A program made the position numbers and the translations under genes. The notes under the pieces are model-generated. The model ran no database searches and was not told where the DNA came from. It was given only the letters and a program-made list of their open reading frames with translations. 53,480 bases of DNA from Agromyces seonyuensis. GTDB lineage: Bacteria > Actinomycetota > Actinomycetes > Actinomycetales > Microbacteriaceae. Positions 5,922 through 49,587 of the stretch are shown piece after piece (positions within the stretch are counted from its first letter, which is position 1; every line of letters starts with the position of its first letter). Location: contig NZ_WSTA01000018.1 in assembly GCF_009789225.1 (NCBI RefSeq), forward strand, positions 1 through 53,480, read 5' to 3'.

Positions 5922-6151
5922 GTCGGTCGAGTCGGCGCGCAGCGTCGATCCCGTTGGTCGAGTAGGCGCGCAGCGCCGATCCCGTTGGTCGAGTAGGCGC
6001 GCAGCGCCGTATCGAGACCGTCGCGTGGTCTCGAGACGCTCCTGCGTCGCTCCTCGACCGGCGGATGGTCCCGTCGGCCGAGTAAGCGCGCAGCGCCGTA
6101 TCGAGACCGTCGCGTGGTCTCGAGACGCTCCTGCGTCGCTACTCGACCGGC
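5922..6151. repeat. Palindromic repeat locus A (three left arms, then right-left-right)
   Basis: Three tandem left-arm copies (near 5922, 5953 and 5984, the last two about 31 bases apart) contain GGTCGAGTAGGCGCGCAG variants. They are followed by a right arm, another left arm at about 6070-6107, and a final right arm to about 6150. Arms pair through CGTATCGAGACC with GGTCTCGAGACG. It sits between the convergent GH20 and RlmC genes. The last right arm runs into the rlmC 3' end and provides its stop codon. Confidence 0.85.
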
Positions 6152-7299
6152 TGGAGGCGGCGTTCGAGCAGCACCATGACCTCGAAGTGCGTCGTCTGCG
6201 GGAACATGTCGAAGACGCGCGCCTTGACGGGGCGGAGGCTCGGCATGGCCGCGAGGTCGCGGGCGAGCGAGGCGGCGTTGCAGCTCGAGTAGAGCACGTG
6301 CGAGGCATCCGACGCCTCGAGCCAGGCGGCCAGCTCGGCGCCGATGCCGCGCCGCGGCGGGTTGACGACGACGAGGTCGGGCACCTCGTGGGGCGCGGCG
6401 CCGAGCGCGAAGGCCGTGGCATCGCCGGCGGCGAAGCGCACCCGTTCGAGCGCGGCGTCCGTGCGGGAGAGCTCGGCGCTCGCGACGGCCTCGACGCTCG
6501 TCTCGATGCCGGTGACCTCGGTGCCCGTCGGCGTGCCCGCGGAGGACGCGAGGTGCAGCGCGAACCCCCCGACGCCCGAGTAGAGGTCCCACGCCGAGTC
6601 CGGGGCGAGGTCGCGGATCCAATCGCGCGCCTCCCCGTAGAGGGCCTCCGCGATGACGGTGTTCGTCTGGAAGAAGCTCTGCGGTCGCAGGTGCAACGTC
6701 ACGTCGTTGAGCCGCATCGGCAGGGTGTCGTGCTCGGTGAGCACGAGCTCCTGCTCGCCCTCGAGCACCGCCTTGTGCTCGGGCAGGATGTTGGCCGACA
6801 CGACGCGCGCGTTCGGCAGTTCGGCGAGCAGGGCCGGCAGGTGCTTGCGGATGCGCCCGACCGGCTCGGTCGAACGCAGCACGAAGCGGATCATGAGCTC
6901 GCCGTCGGGCGACTCGGTGAGGATGAGGTGCTTGAGCTCGCCGCGCCGGCTCGGCACGTCGTACGGCGCGATCCTCGCGAGTCCGATGAAGCGCGCGAGC
7001 ACGGGGAACGCGGCCCGGTGGCCGGGGGAGCAGATGCCGCAGGCCTCGAGGTCGACGCCGTGGCCGTCGGCGTCGAGGATGCCGATCGTCGGGGCATCCA
7101 TCGTGCCGCCCACGACCATCTTCGCCTTGTTGCGGTAGGCGGCCTCGGGGCTCGCGACCGGCGCGAGCCAGTCGCCGACGCCGAAGGGCGCGAGCAGTTC
7201 CTCGGCGTGCGACTGCTTGTCGGCGAGCTGCGCGTCGTAGGGGCGGCCCATCAGGCTGCACGAGCGGCAGACCCCCGCATCGAAATACGCGCACTCCAC
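6139..7299 (-). CDS. rlmC: 23S rRNA (uracil-C5)-methyltransferase, RlmC/RumB type
   Basis: 386 residues. An SAM-dependent methyltransferase that makes 5-methyluridine in 23S rRNA. It has the N-terminal iron-sulfur cysteines of the RlmC group (CAYFDAGVCRSC, C3, C11, C14, with a fourth near residue 84 in GICSPG), the SAM fold DLYSGVGGFALH, the VNPPRRG motif and the nucleophile Cys in YSSCN. E. coli RlmC starts the same way, which fixes the GTG at 7299. A GGAGG lies only 1 nt from this GTG, too close to act; a TACCCT hexamer 6 nt upstream points to a leaderless start. The last residues (QPVE) and stop are encoded by the repeat. The exact target uridine is inferred. Confidence 0.88.
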   Translation of the reverse strand: MECAYFDAGVCRSCSLMGRPYDAQLADKQSHAEELLAPFGVGDWLAPVASPEAAYRNKAKMVVGGTMDAPTIGILDADGHGVDLEACGICSPGHRAAFPVLARFIGLARIAPYDVPSRRGELKHLILTESPDGELMIRFVLRSTEPVGRIRKHLPALLAELPNARVVSANILPEHKAVLEGEQELVLTEHDTLPMRLNDVTLHLRPQSFFQTNTVIAEALYGEARDWIRDLAPDSAWDLYSGVGGFALHLASSAGTPTGTEVTGIETSVEAVASAELSRTDAALERVRFAAGDATAFALGAAPHEVPDLVVVNPPRRGIGAELAAWLEASDASHVLYSSCNAASLARDLAAMPSLRPVKARVFDMFPQTTHFEVMVLLERRLQPVE

Positions 7300-7305
7300 C
7301 CCTCC

Positions 7306-7311
7306 AGGGTA
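7306..7311 (-). promoter_or_regulatory. -10 hexamer TACCCT for rlmC
   Basis: On the minus strand, TACCCT ends 6 nt before GTG 7299. It explains a start codon whose nearest GGAGG is too close to be used. Together with TACGCT at 7345-7350 for the divergent DUF402 gene it makes back-to-back leaderless-type promoters. Confidence 0.5.
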
Positions 7312-7356
7312 GGCGGCATCGCCTGCGGGGATGCCGGGCGGGCCTACGCTGGCCGG

Positions 7357-7929
7357 ATGACCGACGCCCCCATTGCGCCCGACGCGCTCGACCTCGTGCC
7401 CGGCGAACAGGTGCTGCTGCGCTTCCGCAAGTACGACGGCGGACGGCACTGGGAGGCCGAGACCGGCGTCTGGCTGGGCCGCGACGCGCATGGCTTCTGG
7501 GTCGGGTTCCCGGAGGGCACGTACTACGAGCGGCCGGGGCGCTCGTTCACCGCGGGCTGGGGGAGCGTGTCGCTGTTCCCGGCGGCCGGGTGGGCGGCGA
7601 CGTTCAACCGCGACCACGATGACACCGAGGTGTACGTCGATCTCACGAGCGAGCCCGAGCTCTTCCGCGACGCCGACGGGGTCGCGGTCGCCGCGCTCAT
7701 CGACCTCGACCTCGACGTGCTGCGCCTCCGCACGGGCGAGCACGTCATCGTCGACCAGGACGAGCTCGTCGAGCATCGCGAGCTGTTCGGCTACCCCGAC
7801 GAGCTCGTCGCGAAGGTCGAGGCCGACGCGGATGCCGTGCTCGCCGCGGCCCGCGCCGGCGAGGCGCCGTTCGACGCGGCCACGCCTGCGCACTGGTTCG
7901 CGGTGCTCGACGGGCTCGTGGGGCGGTAG
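7357..7929 (+). CDS. DUF402 domain-containing protein
   Basis: 190 residues. It shows the DUF402 (FomD/Ntdp-like) pattern: WEAETGVWLGRDAHGFWVGFPEGTYYERPGRSF, then VYVDLTSEPE and LIDLDLDVLRLRTGEHVIVDQDEL, whose acidic residues bind metal in characterised nucleoside di/triphosphatase members. No signal peptide or TM, so cytoplasmic. The substrate is unknown. ATG 7357 follows TACGCT (7345-7350) by 6 nt. It is divergent from rlmC and followed by a repeat locus. Confidence 0.82.
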   Translation: MTDAPIAPDALDLVPGEQVLLRFRKYDGGRHWEAETGVWLGRDAHGFWVGFPEGTYYERPGRSFTAGWGSVSLFPAAGWAATFNRDHDDTEVYVDLTSEPELFRDADGVAVAALIDLDLDVLRLRTGEHVIVDQDELVEHRELFGYPDELVAKVEADADAVLAAARAGEAPFDAATPAHWFAVLDGLVGR

Positions 7930-7940
7930 GCGCGGGGCCG

Positions 7941-8043
7941 TTGGTCGAGTAGGTGCGGAGCGTCGTATCGGCGCCGGTTGCGTGGTCTCGATACGCTCCT
8001 GCGTCGCTACTCGACCGGCGGGGTGCGTCGCTGCTCGACCGGC
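7941..8043. repeat. Palindromic repeat locus B
   Basis: Left arm about 7941-7971 (TTGGTCGAGTAGGTGCGG…CGTATCGG) and right arm about 7983-8018 (GGTCTCGATACGCTCC…CTACTCGACC), then a partial right arm to 8043. It starts 11 bases after the DUF402 stop. The rest of the gap up to 8166 holds only the ribosome-binding site (GGGGAG) of the next gene. Confidence 0.85.
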
Positions 8044-8166
8044 GGGGATGCGTCGGTGTCGAGCGGCCTGGTTGTGCGGCGATGTCGAATTCCGGCGGGC
8101 GAGCACGTCAGCATGGTGTGACGAAGGCCGTCACGGCCCGCGAGGGCGCGGACAGGGGAGCACGCC

Positions 8167-8556
8167 ATGACCGACACGTACGTCTATCTCATCCACGAGC
8201 CCGACTGGGATTCGGACGCCTATCTCGACGCCGCGAGCGGGGTGCCCGGCGGGGACCCGTCGACCAACTTCCCCGAGCATCGGGCCTTCCAGGAGGCCGT
8301 CGCGCGGCTCGGAGCGCGCATCGTCGGGGCCGCGGCTTTGCAGAACGCCCGTCACGGCGGGCGGGTGACCCCCGGCGACGGGGACGCGGCCGAGCGCGAC
8401 GCCGTCTACTCGGACGGGCCGTACCCGGACACGAGCGAAGTCGTCTCCGGCTTCTACATGGTCGAGGTCGACGAGGAGGAGACCGCTCGCCGCATCGCCG
8501 CGCTCGTGCCGACCGGCGGCCACATCGAGTGGCGGAAGGTGTTCCCGATTTCGTGA
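8167..8556 (+). CDS. YCII-related (DGPF) protein
   Basis: 129 residues, a single YCII/DGPF domain. The family motif appears as DGPYPDTSE (the usual form is DGPF-x-E-T-K-E), and the C-terminus GGHIEWRKVFPI is typical. The ATG at 8167 has GGGGAG 6 nt upstream. The stop overlaps the GTG of the sigma factor (GTGA), so the two are translationally coupled. DGPF proteins are the standard genomic partners of ECF42 sigma factors; their biochemical role is not settled. Cytoplasmic, no TM. Confidence 0.85.
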   Translation: MTDTYVYLIHEPDWDSDAYLDAASGVPGGDPSTNFPEHRAFQEAVARLGARIVGAAALQNARHGGRVTPGDGDAAERDAVYSDGPYPDTSEVVSGFYMVEVDEEETARRIAALVPTGGHIEWRKVFPIS

Positions 8557-9860
8557 ACGAGGCGTCGGTCGCCGCACTCGGCGAGGACTTCGTCGACGCC
8601 TGGCCGCGGATCGTCCGCGCCCTGGCGGCCTACACGGGCAGCCTCGACGACGCCCAGGAGTACGCGGCCGAGGCCGTCGCCCGGGCGGTCGCCGAGGCCG
8701 GCGGGGGCGGCGCACCGCTCGGGTCGTTGAGCGCGTGGTGCACGACGGTCGGCAAGCGCGCGTGGCTCGACGACCGGCGGAAGGCGGCCGTCGAGCAGCG
8801 CTACGTCCAGACCGAGGGCGCGTCCGCGCGGGAGCGGGCAGCGCGATGGGATGGCGTGGACGCGACGGAGGGCATCGCCCGCCCGGACGGCGCCGACCCG
8901 ATCGACGACCGCCTCGCGCTGCTCTTCGTCGCCTGCGATCCGGCGCTCACCGAGCAGGCGCGGCTCGTGCTCGCGCTGCGGGTCGTGTGCGGCCTCGACG
9001 TCGCGCGCATCGCCGCCCACCTCGGGGTGCGGCGCACGGCGGCCGCCGCGCGGCTGACCCGCGCGAAGCAGGCGCTCGCCGAGGCGCGCGGCCGATTCAA
9101 GGTGCCGGAGGCGCCCGAACGGCGGGTGCGGCTGCCGGTCGTGCTCGCCGCCGTCGCCGGGATGTTCACCGTCGCCCACCGCGACGTGCTCGATCCGCAG
9201 ACCCCGCGCGACGACCTCGGTCGGCAGGCGCTCTCGATCGCCGACGCGCTCGTGGCCGAGTATCCCGACGACGCCGAGGTGCGCGGGCTGCGCGCCGTCG
9301 TGCGCCTCGGCCTCGCCCGGCGGCCGGGCCGCTTGGATGCCGACGGGGCGGCGATCCCCCTCGACGAGGTCGACCGATCCGTGTGGGACCGACGGCTCAT
9401 CGCCGCCGGGCTCGACGACGCCGCCGCGGCCGCGGACCACGGCGACGGCCGGTTCGTGCTCGAGGCGGCGATCGCGGGACTGCACACGTCGGCGCCGAGC
9501 TTCGCCGCGACCGACTGGGACCGGGTGGTGGGCTTCTACCGGGCGCTCGAGCGGGTGTGGGGCGCGCCGTCGGTGATCGTGGCGCGGCTCGCCGCCGAGG
9601 AGCAGCGAGCGCTGCTCGGGGCGGCGTCGGGGGAGCGGACCGCGACGCTGCGCCGGGTCGAGGCGGAGCTGCGGGAGGTCGCCGCCGGCGCGGCGCCCTA
9701 TGCGGCCGTCGATGCCCGGCTCGCGCTCGCCGACCTCGCGTGGCGCACCGGTCGCCGCGCGGAGGCCGCGGCCGAGTATGCGGAGCTCGCGGCATCGGTG
9801 CCGACCGAGCCGGTGCGCCGGTTCTGCCTCGGCCGCGCGGCTCAGGGCTCGAAGCGGTAG
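8553..9860 (+). CDS. ECF42-type RNA polymerase sigma factor with C-terminal extension
   Basis: 435 residues from GTG 8553. Region 2 lies in the first about 80 residues (VRALAAYTGSLDDAQEYAAEA). Region 4 is around residues 125-170 (LVLALRVVCGLDVARIAAHLGVRRTAAAARLTRAKQAL). It is followed by about 240 residues of helical, TPR-like extension (WDRVVGFYRALERVWG, ARLALADLAWRTGRRAEAAAEYAEL). This long C-terminal domain plus an adjacent DGPF gene defines the ECF42 group. No anti-sigma gene is adjacent, as expected for ECF42, where the extension is thought to control activity. The 3' end overlaps kdpE by 19 bases, convergent. Confidence 0.87.
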   Translation: MNEASVAALGEDFVDAWPRIVRALAAYTGSLDDAQEYAAEAVARAVAEAGGGGAPLGSLSAWCTTVGKRAWLDDRRKAAVEQRYVQTEGASARERAARWDGVDATEGIARPDGADPIDDRLALLFVACDPALTEQARLVLALRVVCGLDVARIAAHLGVRRTAAAARLTRAKQALAEARGRFKVPEAPERRVRLPVVLAAVAGMFTVAHRDVLDPQTPRDDLGRQALSIADALVAEYPDDAEVRGLRAVVRLGLARRPGRLDADGAAIPLDEVDRSVWDRRLIAAGLDDAAAAADHGDGRFVLEAAIAGLHTSAPSFAATDWDRVVGFYRALERVWGAPSVIVARLAAEEQRALLGAASGERTATLRRVEAELREVAAGAAPYAAVDARLALADLAWRTGRRAEAAAEYAELAASVPTEPVRRFCLGRAAQGSKR

Positions 9861-13044: not shown

Positions 13045-13049
13045 CTGCG

Positions 13050-13661: not shown

Positions 13662-13690
13662 TGCTTCGCGTTCCTTTCGGGAAGCCGGGC

Positions 13691-15973
13691 TCAGAAGCCC
13701 GGGATGAGGCGCACGACGAGGTCGATGAGCCAGATGCCGATGAAGGGGACCACGACGCCGCCCAGTCCGTAGACGAGCAGGTTGCGGCCGAGGATCTTGC
13801 TCGCGCCGAGGGGGCGGTATTTCACGCCGCGGAGCGCGAGCGGGATGAGCGCGATGATGACGAGCGCGTTGAAGATGATCGCGGAGAGCACGGCCGAAGC
13901 CGGCGAGTGCAGGCCCATGACGTTGAGCGCCGCGAGGCCGGGGAACACCCCGACGAACATCGCCGGGATGATCGCGAAGTACTTCGCGATGTCGTTGGCG
14001 ATCGAGAACGTCGTCAGGGCGCCGCGGGTGATGAGCAGCTGCTTGCCGATGCGCACGATGTCGATGAGCTTCGTCGGGTCGGAGTCGAGGTCGACCATGT
14101 TGCCGGCCTCCTTCGCCGCCGACGTGCCGGTGTTCATCGCGACGCCGACGTCGGCCTGCGCGAGCGCGGGGGCGTCGTTCGTGCCGTCGCCCGTCATCGC
14201 GACGAGGTTGCCGCCCTCCTGCTCGCGCTTGATGAGCGCGAGCTTGTCCTCTGGCGTCGCCTCGGCGAGGAAGTCGTCGACACCGGCCTCCTTCGCGATC
14301 GCTGCGGCCGTGAGCGGGTTGTCGCCCGTGATCATGACCGTGCGGATGCCCATCGCGCGCAGTTCGGCGAACCGCGCGGGCAGTCCGTCCTTCACGACGT
14401 CCTTCAGGTGCACGACGCCGAGCACGCGGCCCGGGCCGGACGCGGGGCGCTCGGCGACGACGAGCGGCGTGCCGCCCGCGTTCGAGATCTCCTCGACGCG
14501 CGCCGTCAGTTCGTCGAGGAGGCTCGAGGCCATCCGGCCCTCTTCCTCGATCCAGGCGATGACGGCGGAGCCGGCACCCTTGCGGATGCGCGAACCGTCG
14601 GGCAGGTCGAGCCCCGACATGCGGGTCTGCGCGGTGAACGGCACGGGCTCGCCGGCGGGGGCCGTCGGATAGCGGGTACCGCGGGCCGCGGCGAGCTCGA
14701 CGATCGACGCGCCCTCCGGGGTCGGGTCGGCGAGGGAGGCGAGCGCCGCCGCCTCGACGAGCTCGCGGGCCTCCACGCCGTCGAGCGCGACGAACTCGGT
14801 CGCGCGGCGGTTGCCGTAGGTGATCGTGCCCGTCTTGTCGAGCAGGAGCGTCGTGACGTCGCCCGCCGCCTCGACGGCGCGGCCCGACATCGCGAGCACG
14901 TTGCGCTGCACGAGCCGGTCCATGCCGGCGATGCCGATGGCCGAGAGGAGCGCACCGATCGTCGTCGGGATGAGGCAGACGAGCAGGGCGATGAGCACCG
15001 GCACGCTCGCTGGCGCCGCCGCGTAGGAGGCGATCGGGTTGAGCGTGAGCGCGACGACCACGAACACGATCGACAGGCTCGCGAGCAGGATGTTCAGCGC
15101 GATCTCGTTCGGCGTCTTCTGCCGGGCGGCGCCCTCGACGAGGGCGATCATGCGGTCGACGAAGGTCTCGCCCGGCTTCGAGGTGATGCGCACGACGATG
15201 CGGTCGGAAAGCACCCGCGTGCCGCCGGTGACGGCCGAGCGGTCGCCGCCGGACTCGCGCACCACGGGCGCCGACTCGCCGGTGATCGCCGACTCGTCGA
15301 CGGAGGCGATCCCCGCGACGATGTCGCCGTCGCCCGGGATGAGCTCGCCCGCCGACACGACGACCACGTCGCCGAGCGTCAGGTCGGACGACGGCACGTC
15401 CTCGAGGAGGCTCGCGCTCGCCGCGGCATCGTGCAGCGGGTCGTACCCGCGCACGAGGTGGGCGGTCGTCGCCGTGCGGGTCTGCCGCAGCGAGTCGGCC
15501 TGCGCCTTGCCGCGGCCTTCGGCGACGGACTCCGCGAGGTTCGCGAAGATCACCGTCGCCCACAGCCAGAGCGCGATCGCCCAGGTGAACGACCACGGCA
15601 CCTCGGTGCCGCCGGATGCCTCCGGCCCGCCGAGGATCGGCTCGGCGAGGGCGATCGCCGTGGTGAGCAGGGCGCCGATCTCGACGATGAACATGACCGG
15701 GTTGCGGACCATGGCCCGCGGGTCGAGCTTGCGCAGGGCGCCGGGGAGGGCGGCCCAGAGGGCGCGCGGGCCGAAGGCGCTCGCACCGGTCCCCGTCGAT
15801 CGAGTCGGCGCGCCGGCGTCATCCGTCGGTCGAGTCGGCGCGCCGGCGCCGCCCTCCGCCGGTCGAGTCGGCGCGCTAGCGCCGTATCGAGACCCGGTGA
15901 CGTCCGAGGCCGCCTGGTCTCGATACGCTCCTTCGTCGCTACTCGACCAGCGTGACTTCGTTTCGGTGGACAT
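13691..15973 (-). CDS. kdpB: KdpB, potassium-transporting P-type ATPase catalytic subunit, with repeat-encoded N-terminal insertion
   Basis: 760 residues, longer than the usual about 680-700. Normal KdpB sequence begins near residue 66 ([21 protein letters not shown]). Phosphorylation Asp379 lies in [10 protein letters not shown], the A-domain TGES is in [12 protein letters not shown], and the hinge is [20 protein letters not shown]. Residues about 8-61 (from [13 protein letters not shown] to APTRSTG) are encoded by the palindromic repeat, read in an open frame; this predicts a flexible, Arg/Ser/Ala/Pro-rich cytoplasmic tail. ATG 15973 lies 1 nt after the kdpA stop. A downstream start is possible, but none with a good ribosome site is seen. 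It hydrolyses ATP to drive K+ uptake through KdpA. Confidence 0.94.
15793..15951. repeat. Palindromic repeat locus C, inside the kdpB 5' coding region
   Basis: On the plus strand there are left-arm cores at about 15795 and 15825 (GGTCGAGTCGGCGCGCC variants), a full left arm at about 15858-15894 ending CGTATCGAGACC, and a right arm at 15916-15950 (GGTCTCGATACGCTCC…CTACTCGACCAG). All of it lies within kdpB codons 8-61. The reading frame used avoids the in-frame TAG of the arm. Confidence 0.9.
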
Positions 15974-15974
15974 A

Positions 15975-18477: not shown

Positions 18478-18497
18478 GGCCGCGGCATCCGCCCGGG

Positions 18498-26030: not shown

Positions 26031-27397
26031 GCGAGGCGGGCGCGGGCACCGGCGCGGAGACCGGCACGGCTTCCCGGCCGCTCACGCGGCCCGAGCGGCT
26101 CGACCGCCTGCCCTTCACCCGCAAGCACGGCCGGCTGCTCGGCGGCGCCGGCATCGGGTGGGCGCTCGACGCCCTCGACGTGGGGCTGCTCTCATTCGTC
26201 ATCGCCGCGCTCCGCGTGCAATGGGACGCCGAGGTCGGCTCGCTCGGCCTCGTCGCCTCGGTCGGCTTCGCCGGCATGGCGATCGGCGCGGCACTCGGCG
26301 GGCTGCTCGCCGACCGCATCGGGCGCAAGCAGGTCTTCGCCCTCACGCTGCTCGTCTACGGGCTCGCGACGGGTGCGTCCGCGCTCGCGACGGGCGTCGG
26401 GATGCTCATCGCGCTGCGCTTCCTCGTCGGCCTCGGCCTCGGCGCCGAGCTGCCCGTCGCCTCGACGCTCGTCAGCGAGTTCGCGCCGAAGAAGATCCGC
26501 GGCCGCGTCATCGTCGTGCTCGAGTCGTTCTGGGCGATCGGCTGGATCGCCGCCGCGCTCATCGGCTTCCTCGTCATCCCGGGCTCCGACGACGGCTGGC
26601 GCTGGGCGCTCGCGCTCGGCGCGATCCCCGCGGCCTGGGCCATCGTCGTGCGGTGGGGGCTGCCCGAGTCGGTGCGCTTCCTCGACGCGAAGGGCCGCCA
26701 CGAGCAGGCCGAGCGGGTCGTCCGCGAGTTCGAGGAGTCCGCGGGCGTGCCGGCCCCCGCCGAGACGGCTCCGACGCCGGAATCCACGTCGACGGGCGGC
26801 ATCCGCGAGCTCTTCCACGACGGCCGCACCCGCCGCACCATCGCCATCTGGGTGGTGTGGTTCACCGTGAACTTCTCGTACTACGGAGCGTTCACGTGGC
26901 TGCCGAGCATCCTCGTCGCCGAGGGCTACGACCTCCTGACCTCGTTCGGGTACGTCCTGCTCATCACCCTCGCCCAGCTGCCCGGCTACGCGCTCTCGGC
27001 CTGGCTCATCGAGGCGTGGGGCCGCCGGGCGACGCTCGCGGCGTTCCTCGCCGGGTCGGTCGTCTCGGCCGTCGCCTTCGGGTTCGGCGCGGTCAGCGGC
27101 AGCGAGGTGCAGATCGTCGTGAGCGGCATGCTCATGTCGCTCTGCAACCTCGGCGCGTGGGGCGCGCTCTACGCCGTGACGCCCGAGCTCTACCCGACGC
27201 GCCTGCGCGCCACAGGGTCCGGCTGGGCCGCGGGCGTCGGGCGCATCGCCTCGATCCTCGCGCCGCTCACGGTCGCACCGCTCATCGCCGTCGGCGGCAC
27301 GACGCCGCTGTTCGTGCTCTTCGCCGTGGTCTTCGCGGTCGCCGCCGCCGCCGCGCTGTTCCTGCCGGAGCTGAAGGGGACTTCGCTGGTCGAGTAG
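26027..27397 (+). CDS. MFS transporter (sugar-porter/SV2-like type)
   Basis: 456 residues if the TTG at 26027 is used; it overlaps the upstream stop by 4 bases. Twelve TM helices in two halves. Signatures: GWALDALDVGLLSF in TM1, LLADRIGRKQVF (motif A), RFLVGLGLGAELPVASTLVSEFAP, and PELYPTRLRATGSGWA in the second half. It is similar to aromatic acid or niacin-type permeases; the substrate is not known. The last residues SLVE and the TAG stop are encoded by palindromic repeat D. Confidence 0.88.
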   Translation: MSEAGAGTGAETGTASRPLTRPERLDRLPFTRKHGRLLGGAGIGWALDALDVGLLSFVIAALRVQWDAEVGSLGLVASVGFAGMAIGAALGGLLADRIGRKQVFALTLLVYGLATGASALATGVGMLIALRFLVGLGLGAELPVASTLVSEFAPKKIRGRVIVVLESFWAIGWIAAALIGFLVIPGSDDGWRWALALGAIPAAWAIVVRWGLPESVRFLDAKGRHEQAERVVREFEESAGVPAPAETAPTPESTSTGGIRELFHDGRTRRTIAIWVVWFTVNFSYYGAFTWLPSILVAEGYDLLTSFGYVLLITLAQLPGYALSAWLIEAWGRRATLAAFLAGSVVSAVAFGFGAVSGSEVQIVVSGMLMSLCNLGAWGALYAVTPELYPTRLRATGSGWAAGVGRIASILAPLTVAPLIAVGGTTPLFVLFAVVFAVAAAAALFLPELKGTSLVE

Positions 27398-27466
27398 CGC
27401 AGCGCATCGAGACCCTGCGAGCCGGCGCGGGGTCTCGAGACGCTCCTGCGCCGCTCCTCGACCGGC
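27385..27466. repeat. Palindromic repeat locus D
   Basis: Left arm about 27386-27414 (CTGGTCGAGTAGCGCAGCG…ATCGAGACC) and right arm about 27430-27466 (GGTCTCGAGACGCTCC…CTCGACCGGC). The left arm begins inside the MFS gene and supplies its TAG stop. Confidence 0.88.
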
Positions 27467-31031: not shown

Positions 31032-32778
31032 GACCGAGTCCTCCGGGACTCAGCCCTCCGACGACAGGGACGGCCGGGCGAAGCGACCGAAGCGCGACCT
31101 CGCGCCCGACGTCGCACGACCGGCGGATGCCATCGACGGCGGTTCCGGCGACGACGGCCGCGGGCCCGGCGTGCAGGAGACGAGCCTCGGCTTCATCGGC
31201 TGGCTGCGCTTCGGCTGGCGTCAGCTCACGAGCATGCGCACGGCGCTGCTGCTGCTGCTGCTCGTCGCGATCGCCGCGATCCCCGGTTCCCTCGTGCCGC
31301 AGCGCTCGAGCGACCCCAACGGCGTCACGCAGTACTTCCAGGACAACCCCGACCTCGCGCCGGTGCTCGACTGGTTCCAGCTGTTCGACGTGTACTCGTC
31401 GGTCTGGTTCTCGGCGATCTACCTGCTGCTGTTCGTCTCCCTCATCGGCTGCATCATCCCGCGCACCAAGCACCACTGGCAGGCGCTGCGCGCCCGGCCG
31501 CCGCGCACGCCGGCCCGACTCGGCCGCCTCGCCGGCTACACCGAGCGCACGGTCGTCGGCGACCCGGAGGCCGTGGTCGCGGACGCGACGCTCATCCTGA
31601 AGCGCCTCGGCTACCGCGTCGAACGCTACGAGGCGAAGGGCCAGCCCTCGGTGTCGGCCGAGCGCGGCTACTGGCGCGAGACCGGCAACCTCATCTTCCA
31701 CACGGCGCTCGTGGGCATCCTCGTCGCCGTCGGCATCGGCGGCGGGTTCGGCTTCGCCGGGCAGCGCGTGCTCGTCGAGGGGCAGTCCTTCGTCAACACG
31801 CTGCAGGCCTACGACTCGTTCAACCCGGGCCGCTTCGTCGACACGAACAGCCTGGACGCCTACCGCCTCGGCCTCGAGCAGCTCGACGTCGTCTACGAGA
31901 CCGAGAACCAGGGCGCGATCGGCCAGCCGACCGACTTCACGGCGCACGTCGACGTGCAGCAGCCCGGCGGCGAGACCGAGGACGGCATCGTCAAGGTCAA
32001 CGGCCCGCTGCGCACCAACGGCACCGACGTGTACCTGCTCGGCAACGGCTACGCGCCGACCGTCGAGATCACGGCCCCCGACGGCACCGTCGTCTTCGAC
32101 GACTCGACGCCGTTCCTCCCGCAGAGCGCCGAGCTCACCTCGGTCGGCGTGCTCAAGGTGCCGGACGGCCTCGACGAGCAGCTCGGCCTCATCTGCTTCT
32201 TCTACCCGACGCAGGACGAGCTCGCCTCCGGCGCCTTCACCTCGACCTACCCCGACCTCGTCTACCCGATGCTGACCTGCAACGTGTACCAGGGCGACCT
32301 CGGGCTCGACGACGGCGTGCCCACCTCGGTCTACGAGCTCGACACGAGCGATCTGGAGCAGCTCACGGGCGGCGACACGGGCGTCGACTCGATCGAGCTC
32401 ATGCCCGGCGAGTCCGCCGAGCTGCCGAACGGGCTCGGCACGATCGGGTTCGTGGATGCCTCCGGCGGCGACGTGGCGGCCACGGGCGACTACTCGAACT
32501 CGGTCAAGCGCTTCGCGTCCTTCGACATCCACCGCGACCCGTCGCAGGGATGGGTGCTCGTCTTCGCGATCCTCGTGATCGCCGGCCTCGTGCTCTCGCT
32601 CTTCGTGCCGCGCCGGCGCGTGTGGGTGAAGGCGGTCCCCGGCGAGGACGGCACCGTGACGGTGCAGTACGCGGGTCTCGCCCGCGGCGAGGATCCGACC
32701 CTCGAAGGGGCGGTCGCCTCGCTCGCCGACAAGCACGCCGGCGCATACGAACCCGCCGGCCCCCCGTCGGTCGAGTAG
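31015..32778 (+). CDS. resB: ResB-like cytochrome c biogenesis protein (CcsB/Ccs1)
   Basis: 587 residues if TTG 31015 is the start, overlapping ccdA by 17 bases; an in-frame GTG at 31171 is the alternative. Polar N-terminus, then [29 protein letters not shown] (TM1), further helices at about residues 130-146 and 225-248 ([21 protein letters not shown]), a large extracellular domain, and a final TM ([23 protein letters not shown]). Forms the system II heme lyase with the next gene product. The final residues PSVE and the stop come from repeat E. Confidence 0.9.
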
Positions 32779-32849
32779 CGACGCGTATCGAGACCGGGTG
32801 ACGCGCCCTGCGGGGTCTCGATACGGCGCCGGCGCGCCTACTCGACCGA
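32766..32849. repeat. Palindromic repeat locus E
   Basis: Left arm about 32767-32794 (CGGTCGAGTAGCGACGCG…TATCGAGACC) begins in the last codons of resB and provides its TAG. The right arm, about 32815-32849 (GGTCTCGATACGGCGC…CTACTCGACC), follows after a 20-base centre. It leaves about 30 bases before the ccsB -10. Confidence 0.88.
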
Positions 32850-32894: not shown

Positions 32895-33911
32895 GTGAAT
32901 CTCGACGATTACTCGCTCATCGCCGTCTACTCGGCGATGGCGGTCTACGCGCTCGCGTTCATCGCCTACGCCTTCGACCTGGCGACGCGGTCGACGCCGG
33001 CGCCCGCGACCGCCGAGCGCGAGCTCGTCGGGGCGGCCTCCGTTGGTCGAGTAGCGGCGAAGCCGCGTATCGAGGCCTCGCGGGTCGACTCGGCCGGTCT
33101 CGATACGCCCGCTTCGCGGGCTACTCGACCGACGGGGAACCGCAGCGGCAAGTTCGTCGCCATCGGCACGTCGCTCACGGTCATCGCGTGGGCGCTGCAC
33201 GTCACGGCCGACGTGCTGCGCGGCCTCGCCGCCGGTCGGGTGCCGTTCGCGAACATGTACGAGTTCGCCCTCACGGGCACGCTCATGATCACGACCGTCT
33301 ACCTGATCGTCGTGTTCGCCGTGCGCCAGTACGACCTGCGCTTCCTCGGCACGTTCATCACCGGGCTCGTGCTGGTCTTCCTCGGCGTCGCCACGGTGAA
33401 CTTCTACGTGCCGATCTCGCCGCTGCCGCCGGCACTCCAGTCGGTCTGGCTCGTGATCCACATCTTCGTCGCGACGTCGGCCGTGGGCCTGCTGGCGCTC
33501 GGCTTCGCCCTCTCGATCGTGCAGCTGCTGCAGTCGCACCGCGAGGTCCTGCTCGCCGAGGGCAAGGCCGTGAAGCTGCGCTTCCTCGCGTCGCTGCCGA
33601 ACGCCGAGACCCTCGAGAACCTCGCGTACCGCCTCAACGTCGTAGGCTTCATCTTCTGGACGTTCACGCTCATCGCCGGCGCCGTCTGGGCCGAGCGCGC
33701 CTGGGGCCGCTACTGGGGCTGGGACACCAAGGAGGTGTGGACCTTCATCATCTGGGTGGTCTACGCCGGCTATATCCACGCGCGAGCGACGCGCGGTTGG
33801 CGCGGCTCGCGCTCCTCGTGGCTCGCGATCATCGGCTTCACGACGGTGCTCTTCAACTTCACCGTGGTCAACCTGTTCTTCAAGGGACTGCACGCCTACT
33901 CGGGCCTGTAA
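32895..33911 (+). CDS. ccsB: CcsA/CcsB-type heme-handling cytochrome c synthase subunit, with repeat-encoded insertion
   Basis: 338 residues, about 8 TM helices. The tryptophan-rich WWD-type motif is WGRYWGWDTKEVW, flanked by conserved histidines (HIFVAT, YIHARA). It exports and presents heme for attachment to apocytochrome c together with ResB. Residues about 50-80 (VGRVAAKPRIEASRVDSAGL, then DTPASRATRPT) are encoded by palindromic repeat F, in the loop between TM1 and TM2. The frame stays open through both arms. GTG 32895 is the likely start. Confidence 0.91.
   Translation: MNLDDYSLIAVYSAMAVYALAFIAYAFDLATRSTPAPATAERELVGAASVGRVAAKPRIEASRVDSAGLDTPASRATRPTGNRSGKFVAIGTSLTVIAWALHVTADVLRGLAAGRVPFANMYEFALTGTLMITTVYLIVVFAVRQYDLRFLGTFITGLVLVFLGVATVNFYVPISPLPPALQSVWLVIHIFVATSAVGLLALGFALSIVQLLQSHREVLLAEGKAVKLRFLASLPNAETLENLAYRLNVVGFIFWTFTLIAGAVWAERAWGRYWGWDTKEVWTFIIWVVYAGYIHARATRGWRGSRSSWLAIIGFTTVLFNFTVVNLFFKGLHAYSGL
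33042..33132. repeat. Palindromic repeat locus F, inside ccsB
   Basis: Left arm 33043-33076 (TTGGTCGAGTAGCGGCG…CGTATCGAGGC) and right arm about 33097-33132 (GGTCTCGATACGCCCG…CTACTCGACCG). It is wholly within the ccsB coding region, in a frame that reads the TAG of the arm as GTA-GCG. Confidence 0.9.
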
Positions 33912-33924: not shown

Positions 33925-34231
33925 TTGGTCGAGTAGCGACGAAGGAGCGTATCGAGACCGCGCTGGTGGTCGTACCCGTGGCACGCGTCGGTCGAGTAGC
34001 GACGAAGGAGCGTATCGAGACCCGTCGGGATGCCGTGCCGGCTTGCGAGGTCTCGATACGCTTCGCTACTCGACCAGCGGGACGGCACGCGTCGGTCGAG
34101 TAGCGACGAAGGAGCGTATCGAGACCCCTCGGGATGCCGTGCCGGCTTGCGAGGTCTCGATACGCTTCGCTGCTCGACCAGCGGGCGCACGTCGCTGCTC
34201 GACCAGCGGGCGCACGTCGCCACTCGACCGG
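33925..34231. repeat. Palindromic repeat locus G with a 104-bp tandem duplication
   Basis: A left arm (33925-33959), then two nearly identical 104-bp units, 33981-34084 and 34085-34188, each with left arm, spacer (GGGATGCCGTGCCGGCTTGC) and right arm. Two partial right arms run to about 34231. The units differ at few positions. The locus fills most of the 500-base gap between ccsB and the amylopullulanase promoter. Confidence 0.9.
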
Positions 34232-34255: not shown

Positions 34256-34289
34256 ATTCGGGCGGGCGGGATGGCCGAGATCCGCGTGA

Positions 34290-34412: not shown

Positions 34413-40697
<6,285 letters not shown>

Positions 40698-40716
40698 CGG
40701 TCCTACGCTGGGGGCC

Positions 40717-42564: not shown

Positions 42565-42570
42565 TCGCCG

Positions 42571-42767
42571 GGCGGTCGAGGAGCGACGGAGTCGCGTATC
42601 GAGACCCGTCATGTGGTGTCGGGGTGCGGTTGGTCGAGTAGCGACGGAGTCGCGTATCGAGACCCGTCACGTGGTGTCGGGGTGCGGTTGGTCGAGTAGC
42701 GACGGAGTCGCGTATCGAGACCCGTCACGTGGTCTCGATACGTCGCTTCGCTCCGACTCGACCGGCG
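42571..42767. repeat. Palindromic repeat locus H: three 58-bp tandem left-arm units plus one right arm
   Basis: Left arms start at about 42573, 42631 and 42689, exact 58-base spacing, each TGGTCGAGTAGCGACGGAG…CGTATCGAGACC followed by CGTCACGTGGT. A right arm (42731-42765, GGTCTCGATACGTCGC…GACTCGACCGG) closes it. It fills the gap between the DUF2207 gene and menC (convergent). Confidence 0.9.
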
Positions 42768-42776
42768 GGGGTGCTC

Positions 42777-43790: not shown

Positions 43791-43859
43791 CCTCGAACCC
43801 TATTGCGCGGGCATCCGCAAATGCAGGCAGCCGCAAGCACGGCGGCATAGCCTCGGAGG

Positions 43860-45554: not shown

Positions 45555-45577
45555 CCGCTGCAGCCGGGCAGCCCCGT

Positions 45578-46180: not shown

Positions 46181-46300
46181 GTCGGGCCTCCGTTCGTCCG
46201 GTCGGTGCGATCGGCAGGGTCGGACGCGAGGGAGGCCTGCGAAGGCGAGTCCGTCGCAGCGGTGGATCTCCGAGCCCTCCTGCTCGGGCGGGAGGAGTGT

Positions 46301-47257
46301 TCAGGCGCGCCCGAAGCGCGCTGCCAGGTCTCGTCCGAGGGCGCCGAGCTCCGCTGCCACGCCGGGAGCGTCGCGCACTTCGCGCACCGACCAGGGCGCC
46401 AACTGCTCGGCGAGGCCGCGATCACTGTGCGCGGCGGCGCGTACGAGAGCGGTCGGGCGTCCCTCCGGGGTCGGTGGGCCGTCGCCGAGGCGTTCGGCAT
46501 GCCGGCCGAACCGGTCGAGCAGGGCATCGACGACCGCGTCGTCCACGACCACGACGGCTGCGACGCGCGAGCGGTTCGCCTCGAGTTCGGCGACGATGCC
46601 CGCCCAGGCCGCGGTCGCGTCGTAGCCATCCGGGCGCTCGAAGGTGCGCTCGAGCACCTCGACGTCGGTCATCCGGTCGAGGAGATACGTGCGATGCTCG
46701 CCGCCTCGCCGGGCGAGCAGGTACCAGCGGTCGTGCTTGACGGCGAGCCCGAGCGGGTCGACCTCGCGGTCCGCGGCGGTACCGCTGCGGGCGTAGCCGA
46801 AGCGCACCGCGCGCCGCTCGACGATGGCGTGCTGCAAGAGGTCCGCCCATGCCGGGCGGGGTCGGGTCACTGCGCCCCAGGGCGACGGGTCGACGACGAC
46901 CGCGTCCGCAGCGGCGGCCGCATCGGCGCGGAACGTCTCGGGCAGGGCGCGCAGGAGTTTGCGGAGCGCGGAGCCGGCGGGCGCATCGCGGGCGCTCGCG
47001 GGGCCCAGCAGGGCGAAGAGGCCGCGGGCCTCGTCGGCGGTGAGTCCCGAAAGGTCCGTGCGGCCGCCGCCGAGCAGTCGCCAACCGCCGCCGCGACCGG
47101 CCTGCGGGTAGACCGGGATGCCCGCCGCCGACAGCGCCTCGAAGTCCCGTCGGGCGGTCGCGAGCGAGATCTCGAGCTCCTCGGCCAGCTCGCGCGCGGT
47201 CACGAGGCCCCGGGCCTGCAGGAGCAGGAGGGCCGCCACGAGTCGATCGGCGCGCAT
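46301..47257 (-). CDS. WYL-domain transcriptional regulator
   Basis: 318 residues starting MRADRLVAALLLLQARG. An N-terminal HTH of DeoR/HTH_11 type (residues 1-55, VTARELAEELEISLATARRDFEALSAAGIPVY), then the WYL domain (about residues 145-205) with RWYLLARRGGEHRTYLLDRM, and the C-terminal WCX part. WYL proteins bind single-stranded nucleic acids or ligands. It is divergent from the VOC gene across 112 bases and may control it. A longer frame to 47302 lacks a good start; AGGAAG is 9 nt before ATG 47257. Confidence 0.86.
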   Translation of the reverse strand: MRADRLVAALLLLQARGLVTARELAEELEISLATARRDFEALSAAGIPVYPQAGRGGGWRLLGGGRTDLSGLTADEARGLFALLGPASARDAPAGSALRKLLRALPETFRADAAAAADAVVVDPSPWGAVTRPRPAWADLLQHAIVERRAVRFGYARSGTAADREVDPLGLAVKHDRWYLLARRGGEHRTYLLDRMTDVEVLERTFERPDGYDATAAWAGIVAELEANRSRVAAVVVVDDAVVDALLDRFGRHAERLGDGPPTPEGRPTALVRAAAHSDRGLAEQLAPWSVREVRDAPGVAAELGALGRDLAARFGRA

Positions 47258-47369
47258 GTCTCCATCTTCCTCGGAAAAGTAGTCAGAAGGTGAGCACTTC
47301 ACCCGAGGATGCTGGAATCAGCGGCGATCGAGGGGATCGCCCGACCGATCCGTCAGAGGGGTTCCGATC

Positions 47370-47783
47370 ATGTTCCGAGGATTCGCCACCGCCAACATCA
47401 CCGCCATCGACCTGGAGGCCGCCGCCGCCTGGTACGCCGAGGTCTTCAGCCTCGAACCGTATTTCTCGGTCCCCGGCTACCGGGAGTTCCGCGTCGGCGA
47501 CGACGAGGACGAGTTCGGCATCATCGACGCGGCCTACGTGCCCGGTGCGGAGGCGCAGGCTCCCGCAGTGGCCGGCATCTTCTGGCACGTCGACGACCTC
47601 GACGCCGAGTTCGAGCGCATCGTCGCCCTCGGAGCGCAGGTCGCCCAGCCGATCACCGTGCGCGGCGAGGGATTCCGCACCGCAACGCTCGCCGACCCGT
47701 TCGGCAACCTGCTCGGCATCATGGAGAACGCCCACTTCCGGGCGGCGCACGAGGAGGCCGCCGCGACGGCGACGGCCGAGTAG
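47370..47783 (+). CDS. VOC (glyoxalase) family protein
   Basis: 137 residues, MFRGFATANITAIDLEAAAAWYAEVFSLEPYF. Two VOC beta-alpha modules; FWHVDDLDAEFERIVALGAQV and LADPFGNLLGIMEN are family patterns. It is of the lyase/dioxygenase/bleomycin-resistance superfamily; a small-molecule function is not predictable. It is divergent from the WYL regulator, a common arrangement for such pairs. Unlike most neighbours, no -10 hexamer sits just before its ATG. Confidence 0.85.
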   Translation: MFRGFATANITAIDLEAAAAWYAEVFSLEPYFSVPGYREFRVGDDEDEFGIIDAAYVPGAEAQAPAVAGIFWHVDDLDAEFERIVALGAQVAQPITVRGEGFRTATLADPFGNLLGIMENAHFRAAHEEAAATATAE

Positions 47784-47886
47784 CCCCTCGGCCCTCGGCC
47801 CTCGGTCCGCGGCCCTCGGTCCGCGGCCCTCGGCCCGCGGCTGTGGCGCTCCGCCGCTCCGCCGCTCCGCCGCTCCGCCGCCATCC
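47784..47886. repeat. Two short low-complexity tandem tracts
   Basis: 47784-47842 is a run of CGGCCCTC / GGTCCGCGGCCCTC units, and 47849-47882 is about four copies of CCGCTCCG. Both lie between the VOC stop and the palindrome at 47887. They are non-coding, and slippage is likely. Confidence 0.8.
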
Positions 47887-47944
47887 CGAGTGGGTAGGTG
47901 CTGCGGGTGCGTCGTGCCGCGCACCCGCAGCACCTACCCACTCG
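47887..47944. repeat. 25-bp perfect inverted repeat
   Basis: Left arm 47887-47911 (CGAGTGGGTAGGTGCTGC… ) and right arm 47920-47944 are exactly complementary over 25 bases with an 8-base loop (TCGTGCCG). It is unrelated to the GGTCGAGTAG family. It lies 17 bases before the TPR gene, whose ribosome-binding AGGA is just after the arm. Confidence 0.9.
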
Positions 47945-47961
47945 CGTGACAGGATGACTCG

Positions 47962-48501
47962 GTGAACGATGCATCCCGCAACTGGCCAGCACCCGACGCC
48001 GAGTGGGAGGCCCGGGTCGATGCGGTCTGGGCCGCGGACCTCGCCGACCTCGAACTCCGGGAGCGCATCGCCGCCCTCGCCGCCGAGCTGGCCGACGGGC
48101 ATCCGATCGCCCACTTCGAGGTCGGCGGCAGCTTCGACTCCACGGGCGATGCGGCGACGGCCGTCGAGCACTACCGGGCCGCGCTCGCCGCGGGGCTCGA
48201 GCCGGACCGGCGCCGGCAGTGCGTCATCCAACTCGCGAGCTCGTTGCGCAACCTCGGCGAGGCCGACCACGCTGTGCAGCTGCTCACCGACGAGCTCGCC
48301 CACGCCGAGGAGCCGCACGAGGCGCAACTGCGCGCGTTCCTCGCACTCGCGCTCGCCGACGCCGGGCGCGAGCGGGAAGCGGTCGGCCTCGCGGTCGGCG
48401 CGGTGGGCTCGCTCGTCGAGCGATACCGCCGCAGCCTCACCGCGTACGGCGCGGAGCTCGCGGGCGAGGCGTTCCCGCCCGCTCTCCCGGTGGTCGAGTA
48501 G
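47962..48501 (+). CDS. Tetratricopeptide-repeat protein
   Basis: 179 residues from GTG 47962, with AGGA about 7 nt upstream. Several TPR-like helical pairs: PIAHFEVGGSFDSTGDAATAVEHYRAALAAG, QCVIQLASSLRNLGEADHAVQLLTDELA and EAQLRAFLALALADAGREREAVGLAVGA. It resembles the small Tet-repeat family common in actinobacteria; partners are unknown. The final PVVE and TAG stop come from palindromic repeat I. Confidence 0.83.
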   Translation: MNDASRNWPAPDAEWEARVDAVWAADLADLELRERIAALAAELADGHPIAHFEVGGSFDSTGDAATAVEHYRAALAAGLEPDRRRQCVIQLASSLRNLGEADHAVQLLTDELAHAEEPHEAQLRAFLALALADAGREREAVGLAVGAVGSLVERYRRSLTAYGAELAGEAFPPALPVVE

Positions 48502-48627
48502 CGACGAAGGGTCTCCTCCCGCTGGTCGAGTAGCGACGAAGGAGCGTCTCCTCCCGCTGGTCGAGTAGCGACGAAGGAGCGCCTCCTCCCGCTGGTCGAG
48601 TAGCGACGAAGGAGCGTATCGAGACCC
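48489..48627. repeat. Palindromic repeat locus I: four left arms in tandem, no right arm
   Basis: TGGTCGAGTAGCGACGAAGG occurs at about 48491, 48523, 48558 and 48593, separated by CTCCTCCCGC spacers (32, 35 and 35 base periods). The last copy ends in the full CGTATCGAGACC. It is directional and cannot form the usual hairpin. It starts inside the TPR gene and ends just before the menB -10. Confidence 0.9.
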
Positions 48628-48631
48628 GAAC

Positions 48632-48637
48632 TAGGCT
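48632..48637 (+). promoter_or_regulatory. -10 hexamer TAGGCT for menB
   Basis: It ends 7 nt before ATG 48645, directly behind repeat I. Confidence 0.5.
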
Positions 48638-48644
48638 GGAACCC

Positions 48645-49553
48645 ATGCGCGACGAGGTCTCCGAACTGTTCGATCCGAGCCAGTGGGTGCTCGCCCCCGG
48701 GGCGGAGCGGCTGACCGACATCACCTCGCACCGCTCCCTCGACGGCCGTATCGCGCGCATCGCGTTCGACCGCCCCGAGGTGCGCAACGCCTTCCGGCCG
48801 CACACCGTCGACGAGCTCTACACGGAGCTCGACGCCGCGCGGCAGGACTCGACGGTCGGCGTCGTGCTCATCACGGGCAACGGCCCGAGCTCCAGGGACG
48901 GCGGCTGGGCGTTCTGCTCCGGCGGCGACCAGCGCATCCGTGGCCGTGACGGCTACAAGTACTCCGACGACGAAGTCTCCGTCGGCGACCCGGCCCGCGC
49001 GGGCCGCCTGCACATCCTCGAGGTGCAGCGCCTCATCCGCTTCATGCCGAAGGTCGTCATCGCGGTCGTGCCCGGCTGGGCGGCGGGCGGCGGCCACTCC
49101 CTGCACGTCGTGTGCGACCTCACGATCGCCTCGCGCGAGCACGGCCGCTTCAAGCAGACGGATGCGGACGTGGGCTCCTTCGACGGCGGCTACGGCTCCG
49201 CGTACTTCGCCCGGCAGATCGGGCAGAAGTTCGCCCGCGAGGTGTTCTTCCTCGCCGAGGAGTACTCGGCCGACCGCGCCTACGAGATGGGCGCCGTCAA
49301 CCGCGTCGTTCCCCACGCCGAGCTCGAGCGCGAGGCGATCTCGATGGCGCGCACGATCCTGACGAAGTCGCCCACGGCGATCCGCATGCTGAAGTTCTCG
49401 TTCAACGCCGTCGACGACGGCATGGTCGGCCAGCAGGTCTTCGCGGGCGAGGCGACGCGGCTCGCCTACGGCACCGACGAAGCGGTCGAGGGCCGTGACG
49501 CGTTCCTGCAGAAGCGCGAGCCCGACTGGTCGCCCTTCCCCTGGCAGTACTGA
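48645..49553 (+). CDS. menB: 1,4-Dihydroxy-2-naphthoyl-CoA synthase
   Basis: 302 residues, crotonase superfamily. Closes the naphthoate ring of o-succinylbenzoyl-CoA in menaquinone synthesis. Signatures: FDRPEVRNAFRPHTVDEL, WAFCSGGDQRIRGRDGY, PGWAAGGGHSLHVVCDLTIAS (oxyanion hole), DADVGSFDGGYGSAYFARQIG, and C-terminal WSPFPWQY. ATG 48645, with TAGGCT 7 nt upstream. menE follows after 34 bases. Confidence 0.95.
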   Translation: MRDEVSELFDPSQWVLAPGAERLTDITSHRSLDGRIARIAFDRPEVRNAFRPHTVDELYTELDAARQDSTVGVVLITGNGPSSRDGGWAFCSGGDQRIRGRDGYKYSDDEVSVGDPARAGRLHILEVQRLIRFMPKVVIAVVPGWAAGGGHSLHVVCDLTIASREHGRFKQTDADVGSFDGGYGSAYFARQIGQKFAREVFFLAEEYSADRAYEMGAVNRVVPHAELEREAISMARTILTKSPTAIRMLKFSFNAVDDGMVGQQVFAGEATRLAYGTDEAVEGRDAFLQKREPDWSPFPWQY

Positions 49554-49559
49554 CCTCAG

Positions 49560-49587
49560 CCGGTCGAGTGCGGAGCGAATCGAGACC
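49560..49587 (+). repeat. Palindromic repeat locus J: single short left arm
   Basis: CGGTCGAGTGCGGAGCG followed by AATCGAGACC, a degenerate left arm with no right arm. It ends directly at the menE ATG and so forms most of the menB-menE gap. Confidence 0.75.

What the first reader, a model, noticed from the sequence alone, without database searches (positions are those of the whole stretch)
5922..49587. A dispersed palindromic repeat family at ten loci
Seen directly: a left arm beginning GGTCGAGTAGCGACGAAG and ending CGTATCGAGACC, and its reverse complement as the right arm, at 5922-6151, 7941-8043, 15793-15951, 27385-27466, 32766-32849, 33042-33132, 33925-34231, 42571-42767, 48489-48627 and 49560-49587. 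Full copies can form hairpins with stems of about 30 bp. No transposase is nearby. Arrangement varies (L-R, L-L-L-R, L only). I know of no name for it; it could be REP/MITE-like. Its conserved arms and varied centres suggest movement or gene conversion, or selection on structure.
Basis: seen in the sequence. Interest (0 to 1): 0.85.

Follow-up and report, generated by a model that had tools for sequence, protein, structure and literature searches.

The report
Orphan hairpin repeats near gene ends
This soil bacterium and many relatives carry up to hundreds of copies of a short hairpin-shaped DNA repeat, mostly at gene ends, that looks like a tiny mobile element but lacks the enzyme known to move such elements in other bacteria.

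Summary
Observation confirmed: nine of the ten loci hold 22 complete units (27-35 nt), the tenth a degenerate one; 200 Markov-random windows held none. It is a genome-wide family (226 strict copies), found in 43 of 60 Agromyces genomes, in other Actinomycetota (671 copies in one Rathayibacter) and in Chloroflexota. Variation shows selection on a fold of one strand: arm position 4 covaries with its partner, the apical stem covaries, its main exception is a tandem G-A/A-G mismatch, and 90 of 192 distinct actinobacterial apical segments close into GNA/GNNA loops (shuffles at most 8; other strand 2), the loops of ultrastable DNA mini-hairpins. Units form inverted pairs, lie a median 13 bp from stop codons, and are present or absent at orthologous sites. 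The known mobiliser of such repeats, RAYT (Y1 transposase), is absent from all 60 Agromyces and 12 of 12 other actinobacteria tested. Best reading: REPIN-like elements moved as folded single-stranded DNA by an unidentified enzyme. A DUF222-HNH nuclease bracketed by units in some Rathayibacter copies was tested and is no general answer. The mover remains unknown.

The parts
5922..6151 (.). Cluster in a convergent gap: complete units 5987-6019 (+), 6027-6059 (-), 6116-6148 (-) plus partial units; the TAG of the last unit is the stop of the called minus-strand gene ending at 6139
7941..8043 (.). Cluster in a divergent gap: complete unit 7984-8016 (-) and partial units
15793..15951 (.). Cluster between kdpA and kdpB (same operon, minus strand): 15861-15894 (+), 15916-15948 (-), partial units upstream
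27385..27466 (.). Inverted pair in a convergent gap: 27388-27414 (+), 27431-27463 (-); its TAG is the stop of the transporter gene ending at 27397
32766..32849 (.). Inverted pair between resB and ccsB: 32769-32795 (+), 32814-32847 (-); its TAG is the resB stop; 21 of 30 compared Agromyces loci have a gap of 25 bp or less without units here
33042..33132 (.). Inverted pair inside ccsB, in frame, in its variable linker: 33045-33077 (+), 33096-33130 (-)
33925..34231 (.). Array after ccsB: 33927-33959 (+), 33990-34022 (+), 34049-34075 (-), 34094-34126 (+), 34153-34179 (-), partial units after that
42571..42767 (.). Array in a convergent gap: 42574-42606, 42632-42664, 42690-42722 (+, 58-bp period), 42731-42763 (-)
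48489..48627 (+). Four direct units, the last complete (48594-48626); TAG of the first is the stop of the TPR gene ending at 48501
49560..49587 (+). Degenerate unit directly in front of the called start codon of the AMP-binding gene at 49588

Best explanation
A REPIN-like family of non-autonomous mobile DNA. Each unit can fold, on the GGTCGAG strand, into a hairpin with unpaired arm bases and a GNA/GNNA loop; two units in inverted orientation, most often 8-9 or 18-20 bp apart, are the usual repeating entity. An enzyme acting in trans recognises the folded single strand and copies or pastes it elsewhere; insertions survive mainly just behind stop codons, where they do least harm. Shown: dispersed copies, covariation and a strand-specific loop rule, inverted-pair organisation, presence/absence at orthologous sites, absence of Y1/RAYT in the actinobacterial hosts tested. 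Inferred: that DNA rather than RNA is the selected molecule, that a protein reads the fold, and that this protein is not a RAYT. The protein was not identified.
For: Copy number 0 to 226 across 60 Agromyces genomes, 3 to 671 in 26 named genomes. Position 4/-4: C-G 201, T-A 27, other 8 of 236 distinct units. 33-nt units: 83% of cells paired and 86 both-sided changes against at most 55% and 25 in slid registers and 69% with shuffled partners. GNA/GNNA loops in 90 of 192 distinct segments, shuffles mean 2.65, maximum 8, other strand 2; 15 of the 18 GNNA loops are not GNRA; such loops are known as ultrastable in DNA (PMC4686876, passages). 105 of 150 multi-unit clusters start + and end -. resB-ccsB: 8 of 30 occupied. 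Rathayibacter: 159 bp with a unit in G752 against 26 bp in G763 between aligned flanks. Y1_Tnp in 0 of 60 Agromyces and 0 of 12 other actinobacteria.
Against: No mover found. Single units fold no better than shuffles with DNA energies (z from -1.31 to 0.71); the structured strand does fold better than its complement with RNA energies, which suits an RNA role; the DNA minimum-energy fold is a different one. Solo units lean to gene sense (25 of 37). No target duplication was seen. Absence of RAYT now does not prove another mover: E. coli genomes without RAYT still keep at least 69 REPINs (PMC8049555, passages). Insert borders are ragged.
Confidence: 0.55

Rival explanations
1. Host-useful RNA elements: bidirectional terminators or 3'-end protectors. 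An inverted pair shows the structured strand first to transcripts coming from either side. Copies spread by ordinary recombination.
For: 35 of 73 clusters lie in convergent gaps although these are 55 of 265 gaps in the same stretches; the stop side is nearer than the start side in 85 of 103 tandem gaps; sense strand folds better as RNA than its complement; solo units 25 sense, 12 antisense in tandem gaps.
Against: 17 of 60 Agromyces genomes have no strict copy; most orthologous resB-ccsB gaps lack it; placement also fits avoidance of promoters; GNNA loops mostly not GNRA; solo units in convergent gaps 11 sense to the nearer, 9 to the farther gene.
Confidence: 0.16
2. No dedicated mover: copies grow and spread by slippage, template switching at hairpins and gene conversion.
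For: Tandem arrays with periods of 58 bp in the window and about 100-107 bp in G681 and G017; ragged borders at the Rathayibacter sites.
Against: Does not explain copies dispersed at unrelated gene ends or the conserved unpaired arm letters or the same arms in two phyla.
Confidence: 0.14
3. The DUF222-HNH nuclease (PF02720; called the 13E12 repeat family in mycobacteria) moves the units or lives in them, as RAYT does with REPs.
For: In six close Rathayibacter copies chosen for inspection a unit or relic lies upstream in six and an inverse unit or relic after the stop in three; three of 33 analysed loci of other genomes have units just upstream in gene sense.
Against: 14 of 23 Rathayibacter loci with a DUF222 hit have no unit; counts over 60 Agromyces are unrelated (Spearman -0.009) and six genomes have 12 to 65 repeats and no DUF222; this genome has one copy without units in the 7 kb fetched.
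Confidence: 0.08

Closest known systems
REP / BIME / REPIN elements with RAYT transposases (gammaproteobacteria and others)
   Same: Short imperfect palindromes in tens to hundreds of copies, inverted pairs forming long hairpins, mosaic arrays, extragenic and close to gene ends (PMC2817692, PMC3116915, PMC3733652; abstracts and passages)
   Different: No free GT(A/G)G head: the GTAG/GGAG of this unit lies inside the stem; no cognate Y1 gene in the actinobacterial hosts; GNA/GNNA loop rule and G-A mismatch rule not mentioned in what I read
CGTC-tagged REPs (PMC3733652)
   Same: Small palindromes without an associated transposase
   Different: Unpaired CGTC tag and 8-9 bp stems with CCA tail; phyla listed there do not include Actinomycetota or Chloroflexota
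Integron attC sites and IS200/IS605 end hairpins (recalled, not tested by a search)
   Same: Single-stranded imperfect hairpins with extrahelical bases read by a recombinase; attC has a variable apical part
   Different: No cassettes, no matching core boxes by eye, no Y1 transposase in the hosts tested
DUF222-HNH / REP13E12 repeat family (name recalled and seen in PMC10589994 passage)
   Same: Multicopy actinobacterial repeat; some Rathayibacter copies carry units at their ends
   Different: A gene-bearing repeat; mostly not next to units

Membership tests
REP/REPIN with RAYT | Short imperfect palindrome in many dispersed, mainly extragenic copies | tested here: met
REP/REPIN with RAYT | Inverted pairs as the common unit | tested here: met
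   230 adjacent +- and 122 -+ pairs; 105 of 150 clusters start + and end -
REP/REPIN with RAYT | Unpaired GT(A/G)G head at one end | tested here: not met
   GTAG/GGAG is at positions 7-10 inside the stem; the unit begins with GGTC, whose position 4 covaries with -4
REP/REPIN with RAYT | Cognate Y1 (RAYT) gene in the genome, bracketed by the repeat | tested here: not met
   0 of 60 Agromyces, 0 of 12 other actinobacteria; in Chloroflexota Y1 genes exist in 14 of 14 but 0 of 50 fetched Y1 loci are bracketed
CGTC-tagged REP | Unpaired CGTC (or TGTC/CCTC) tag at one end | tested here: not met
   Ends are GGT and ACC, nearly invariant
MITE | Ends shared with an autonomous element; target duplication | tested here: inconclusive
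   Unit-bracketed DUF222-HNH blocks seen only in some Rathayibacter copies; no duplication visible at one simple empty site
Known Rfam RNA family | Match above gathering score | tested here: not met
   0 matches in the window

The most novel reading that the evidence does not exclude
A second, RAYT-independent class of REPIN-type elements exists in Actinomycetota and shares its arms with Chloroflexota. It is moved by an undescribed enzyme that reads a folded DNA strand capped by a GNA/GNNA mini-hairpin, with tandem sheared G-A pairs and extrahelical G and T as recognition marks.
Probability: 0.38. Interest if true: 0.87.

Novelty: new variant of a known kind. Interest (0 to 1): 0.68.

Why it matters
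REPINs are explained by RAYT transposases. A family of similar size in two phyla, whose actinobacterial hosts tested here lack RAYT altogether, means either that another kind of enzyme moves folded single-stranded DNA or that such families can grow without one. The strand-specific loop rule gives a concrete ligand with which to fish for the protein, and copy numbers from 0 to 226 within one genus make the question open to comparative genomics. By my gene calls the repeats also rewrite gene ends: at 27 gene ends in two genomes the stop codon lies in a repeat.

Tried and rejected
RAYT/Y1 as mover in the host genus: rejected for the present genomes. Y1 genes bracketed by units in Chloroflexota: 50 Y1 loci fetched, 4 with a complete unit within about 1.5 kb, none bracketed; strict counts would predict about one in 50, but my unit detection there was laxer. 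DUF222-HNH: promising in Rathayibacter, not general (of 40 DUF222 loci fetched I analysed 33). Gene families recurrently next to units across sources: the ten representatives scanned were ordinary (aminotransferase, aldehyde dehydrogenase, ABC, SDR, two TetR, LacI, GNAT, response regulator) except one DUF222-HNH. Genes with units within 350 bp on both sides: 24 of 1167; I recognised no transposase among them but did not scan all. Plasmids and phages: no match to a 166-bp cluster. Published sequence strings: 21 papers, 20 listed, none relevant by title.

An apparent all-plus run of G017 places beyond 1.05 Mb looks like a listing cut-off, not a strand bias, and was not used. One search used a pattern one base too long (34-nt units, 28 distinct); there the register shifted by +1 gave 91% pairing; one search repeats it at four lengths.

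Limits: gene calls come from my own codon-score caller trained on this genome, less safe in other genera, where its count of 31 clusters inside genes is doubtful. One search dropped clusters without two flanking genes or more than 600 bp from one. In one search neighbouring clusters under 300 bp apart were merged, so the pair inside ccsB was counted with the resB-ccsB gap. Near copies were found by similarity to the consensus, so their conservation is partly built in. Sources (160) include loci that overlap G000; distinct-sequence counts are not affected. Strict genus counts miss GGTT/AACC forms. The searches list only the first places of a genome (100 of 161), so the context set (73 clusters, 325 kb with the window) is a large part of the family, not all. 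Single hits in the phylum and order samples are near chance: the reversed control gives single hits too.
Full report
OBSERVATION. Both motifs occur far above chance and all ten loci hold the repeat. A fuzzy whole-unit scan gives 22 complete units in nine loci once one spurious and one overlapping row are removed; the tenth locus has a degenerate unit. The exact pattern gives 16 units against 0 in 200 order-1 Markov sequences. Truncated copies surround them.

HOST AND SPREAD. The window is one contig of a 3.92-Mb draft of 169 contigs. This genome has 226 strict copies; 43 of 60 genomes of the genus have some and 17 have none. In an order-wide sample 29 of 297 genomes match at all, ten of them with five or more copies; in a phylum-wide sample 23 of 396. 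They come from Rathayibacter, Agreia, Agrococcus, Leifsonia, Microterricola, Nocardioides, Mumia, Aeromicrobium, Gordonia, Flexivirga and others, and also from Anaerolineales and other Chloroflexota. Of 26 of these genomes searched whole, all have between 3 and 671 copies and none has a hit for the reversed pattern. The 17 Chloroflexota loci whose composition I checked have 40-66% G+C against 72% in the window, which speaks against contamination by an Agromyces-like genome. The scan pattern did not include the GACC end, yet nearly all hits have it. One 27-mer is identical in an Anaerolineales MAG (L193) and at window 34049-34075.

ANATOMY. In a 33-nt unit the arms are GGTCGAGnAGC and GCGTnTCGAGACC; among 111 near copies in the stretches of this genome, 22 of the 24 arm positions agree in at least 105, positions 8 and 25 being the variable ones (the copies were found by similarity, so this is partly built in). 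About four bases in front of the unit are weakly conserved, while little is conserved behind it. Across 236 distinct units position 4 pairs with -4 (C-G 201, T-A 27, other 8), and T-A forms occur in many separate sources. Position 8 covaries with -9 less strictly (T-A 184, G-C 17, C-G 2, other 33). The apical stem varies but stays paired: among 92 distinct 33-nt units 83% of tested cells pair, with 86 both-sided changes, against at most 55% and 25 for slid registers and 69% for shuffled partners. Units of 31 and 35 nt behave alike; for the 16 distinct 27-nt units pairing (81%) does not exceed shuffles (79%, maximum 84%), since they hardly vary. The exceptions are not random: pair 12-20 is G.A in 26 and pair 13-19 is A.G in 27 of the 92. 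Allowing G.A pairs closes 98 of 190 distinct apical segments to a loop of four or fewer; with no extra pair 54 close, with C.T (the same test for the other strand) 55, and with the other mismatch types 55 to 66.

LOOP. In actinobacterial sources 72 of 192 distinct segments end in GNA and 18 in GNNA; shuffled segments give a mean of 2.65 and at most 8, the other strand 2. The remaining 102 do not close that way. Fifteen of the 18 GNNA loops are not GNRA. GNA and GNNA loops on two or more G-C pairs are described as extraordinarily stable DNA mini-hairpins (PMC4686876, passages). Chloroflexota and viral-contig units include five GNA each but more often other loops, such as CGCTCTT, CGTTCTT and TGATCTT. 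I take the loop rule as the best sign that folded DNA, on one strand, is selected. The energy models do not say so: single units fold no better than shuffles as DNA, modestly better as RNA, and the DNA minimum-energy fold is a different one; that fold does not pair 4 with 30, so the covariation speaks against it. Two drawings of the arm fit the covariation: tandem G-A pairs (5-29, 6-28) with extrahelical G23 and T26, or a GA bulge with a bulged G7. The first scores 0.2 (DNA) to 2.2 (RNA) kcal/mol better. I prefer it but have not proved it.

ARRANGEMENT. In 41 stretches of this genome (325 kb, window included) there are 73 clusters: 35 in convergent, 28 in tandem and 4 in divergent gaps, 3 inside coding sequence, 3 at edges; the same stretches have 55 convergent, 156 tandem and 54 divergent gaps in all. 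The median distance to the nearest stop codon of a neighbouring gene is 13 bp (63 clusters). Of 98 gene ends next to clusters 19 take their stop from the unit, in G017 8 of 33, always the TAG of GTC-GAG-TAG. Over all analysed loci the stop side is nearer than the start side in 85 of 103 tandem gaps; multi-unit clusters start with + and end with - in 105 of 150; the spacers of 230 +- pairs peak at 8-9 and 18-20 bp; solo units in tandem gaps are in gene sense in 25 of 37.

GAIN AND LOSS. At resB-ccsB, 30 Agromyces loci (the best matches among 60 genomes) were compared: 8, this one included, carry units, 21 have a gap of 25 bp or less without units, and one has 130 bp without a recognised unit. 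In 7 of the 8 the unit supplies the resB stop. In this genome a second inverted pair lies in frame within the variable linker of CcsB. In Rathayibacter, between flanks of 89-92% identity, G752 has 159 bp with a unit where G763 has 26 bp; at a second site G764 and G765 have 13-22 bp, G762 and G763 about 300-340 bp with differing units, and G752 about 2 kb with units and a DUF222-HNH gene. These comparisons do not tell gain from loss.

SEARCH FOR THE MOVER. Y1_Tnp (PF01797), the domain of RAYTs, has no match in the 60 Agromyces genomes, nor in 12 of 12 other repeat-bearing actinobacteria, the one with 671 copies included; the search rings in 5 of 14 control genomes. PMC6006769 (passages) says that Actinobacteridae carry only the IS200 subclass. 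All 14 Chloroflexota genomes tested have Y1 matches, but complete units lie in only 4 of 50 fetched Y1 loci and bracket none. A multicopy DUF222-HNH gene of Rathayibacter has, in six close copies inspected, a unit or relic upstream in six and an inverse unit or relic after the stop in three, much as RAYT genes are bracketed by REPs (PMC2817692, abstract and passages). But 14 of 23 Rathayibacter loci with this gene have no unit, the gene count does not follow the repeat count over 60 Agromyces genomes (Spearman -0.009), and six genomes have repeats without it.

READING. Most likely these are REPIN-like non-autonomous elements that move as a folded strand by an enzyme not yet known in these hosts. 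A caution: E. coli genomes without RAYT still keep at least 69 REPINs (PMC8049555, passages), so a vanished RAYT is not excluded; it would have had to vanish from every actinobacterium tested here. Membership of the RAYT-REP family fails on two tested features, the free GT(A/G)G head and the cognate Y1 gene; the way of working may still be alike. PMC3733652 (outline, abstract, passages) has no occurrence of 'actinobacter' and lists Chloroflexi among GTAG hosts. RepRanger (PMC12306157, two passages) counts REPs in three Actinomycetota species; I saw no description of this unit. No name for it was found.

Noticed in passing
L218:1650-3450 and L292, L467, L471, L475, L479: Rathayibacter DUF222-HNH nuclease gene with a unit upstream and, in three of six copies, an inverse unit variant (GATCGAG..GAGATCC) right after its stop: a REP-gene-REP-like block.
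   Followed up: partly
window 5922-49587: Unit density here (16 exact units in 53 kb) is about five times the genome mean (226 strict copies in 3.9 Mb); contigs C93 and C104 also have dense stretches.
   Followed up: no
window 33045-33130: Inverted pair inserted in frame in the ccsB coding sequence, between transmembrane parts where relatives have unrelated linkers.
   Followed up: partly
window 49562-49590: A degenerate unit ends exactly at the called start codon of an AMP-binding gene, where a ribosome binding site would be expected.
   Followed up: no
L191, L201, L246, L274 and viral contigs such as L396, L397, L428: Chloroflexota units and several viral-contig units share the arms but often have longer, T-rich loops such as CGCTCTT or TGCTTTT.
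   Followed up: partly
data set: Spacers of +- pairs peak at 8-9 and 18-20 bp, about one helical turn apart; unexplained.
   Followed up: no
L240:6540-7478, L290:5973-7037: Called ORFs in two Agromyces species begin with peptides such as LDTGAGASYSTT, repeated in L290, that look like translated units; possibly wrong starts.
   Followed up: no
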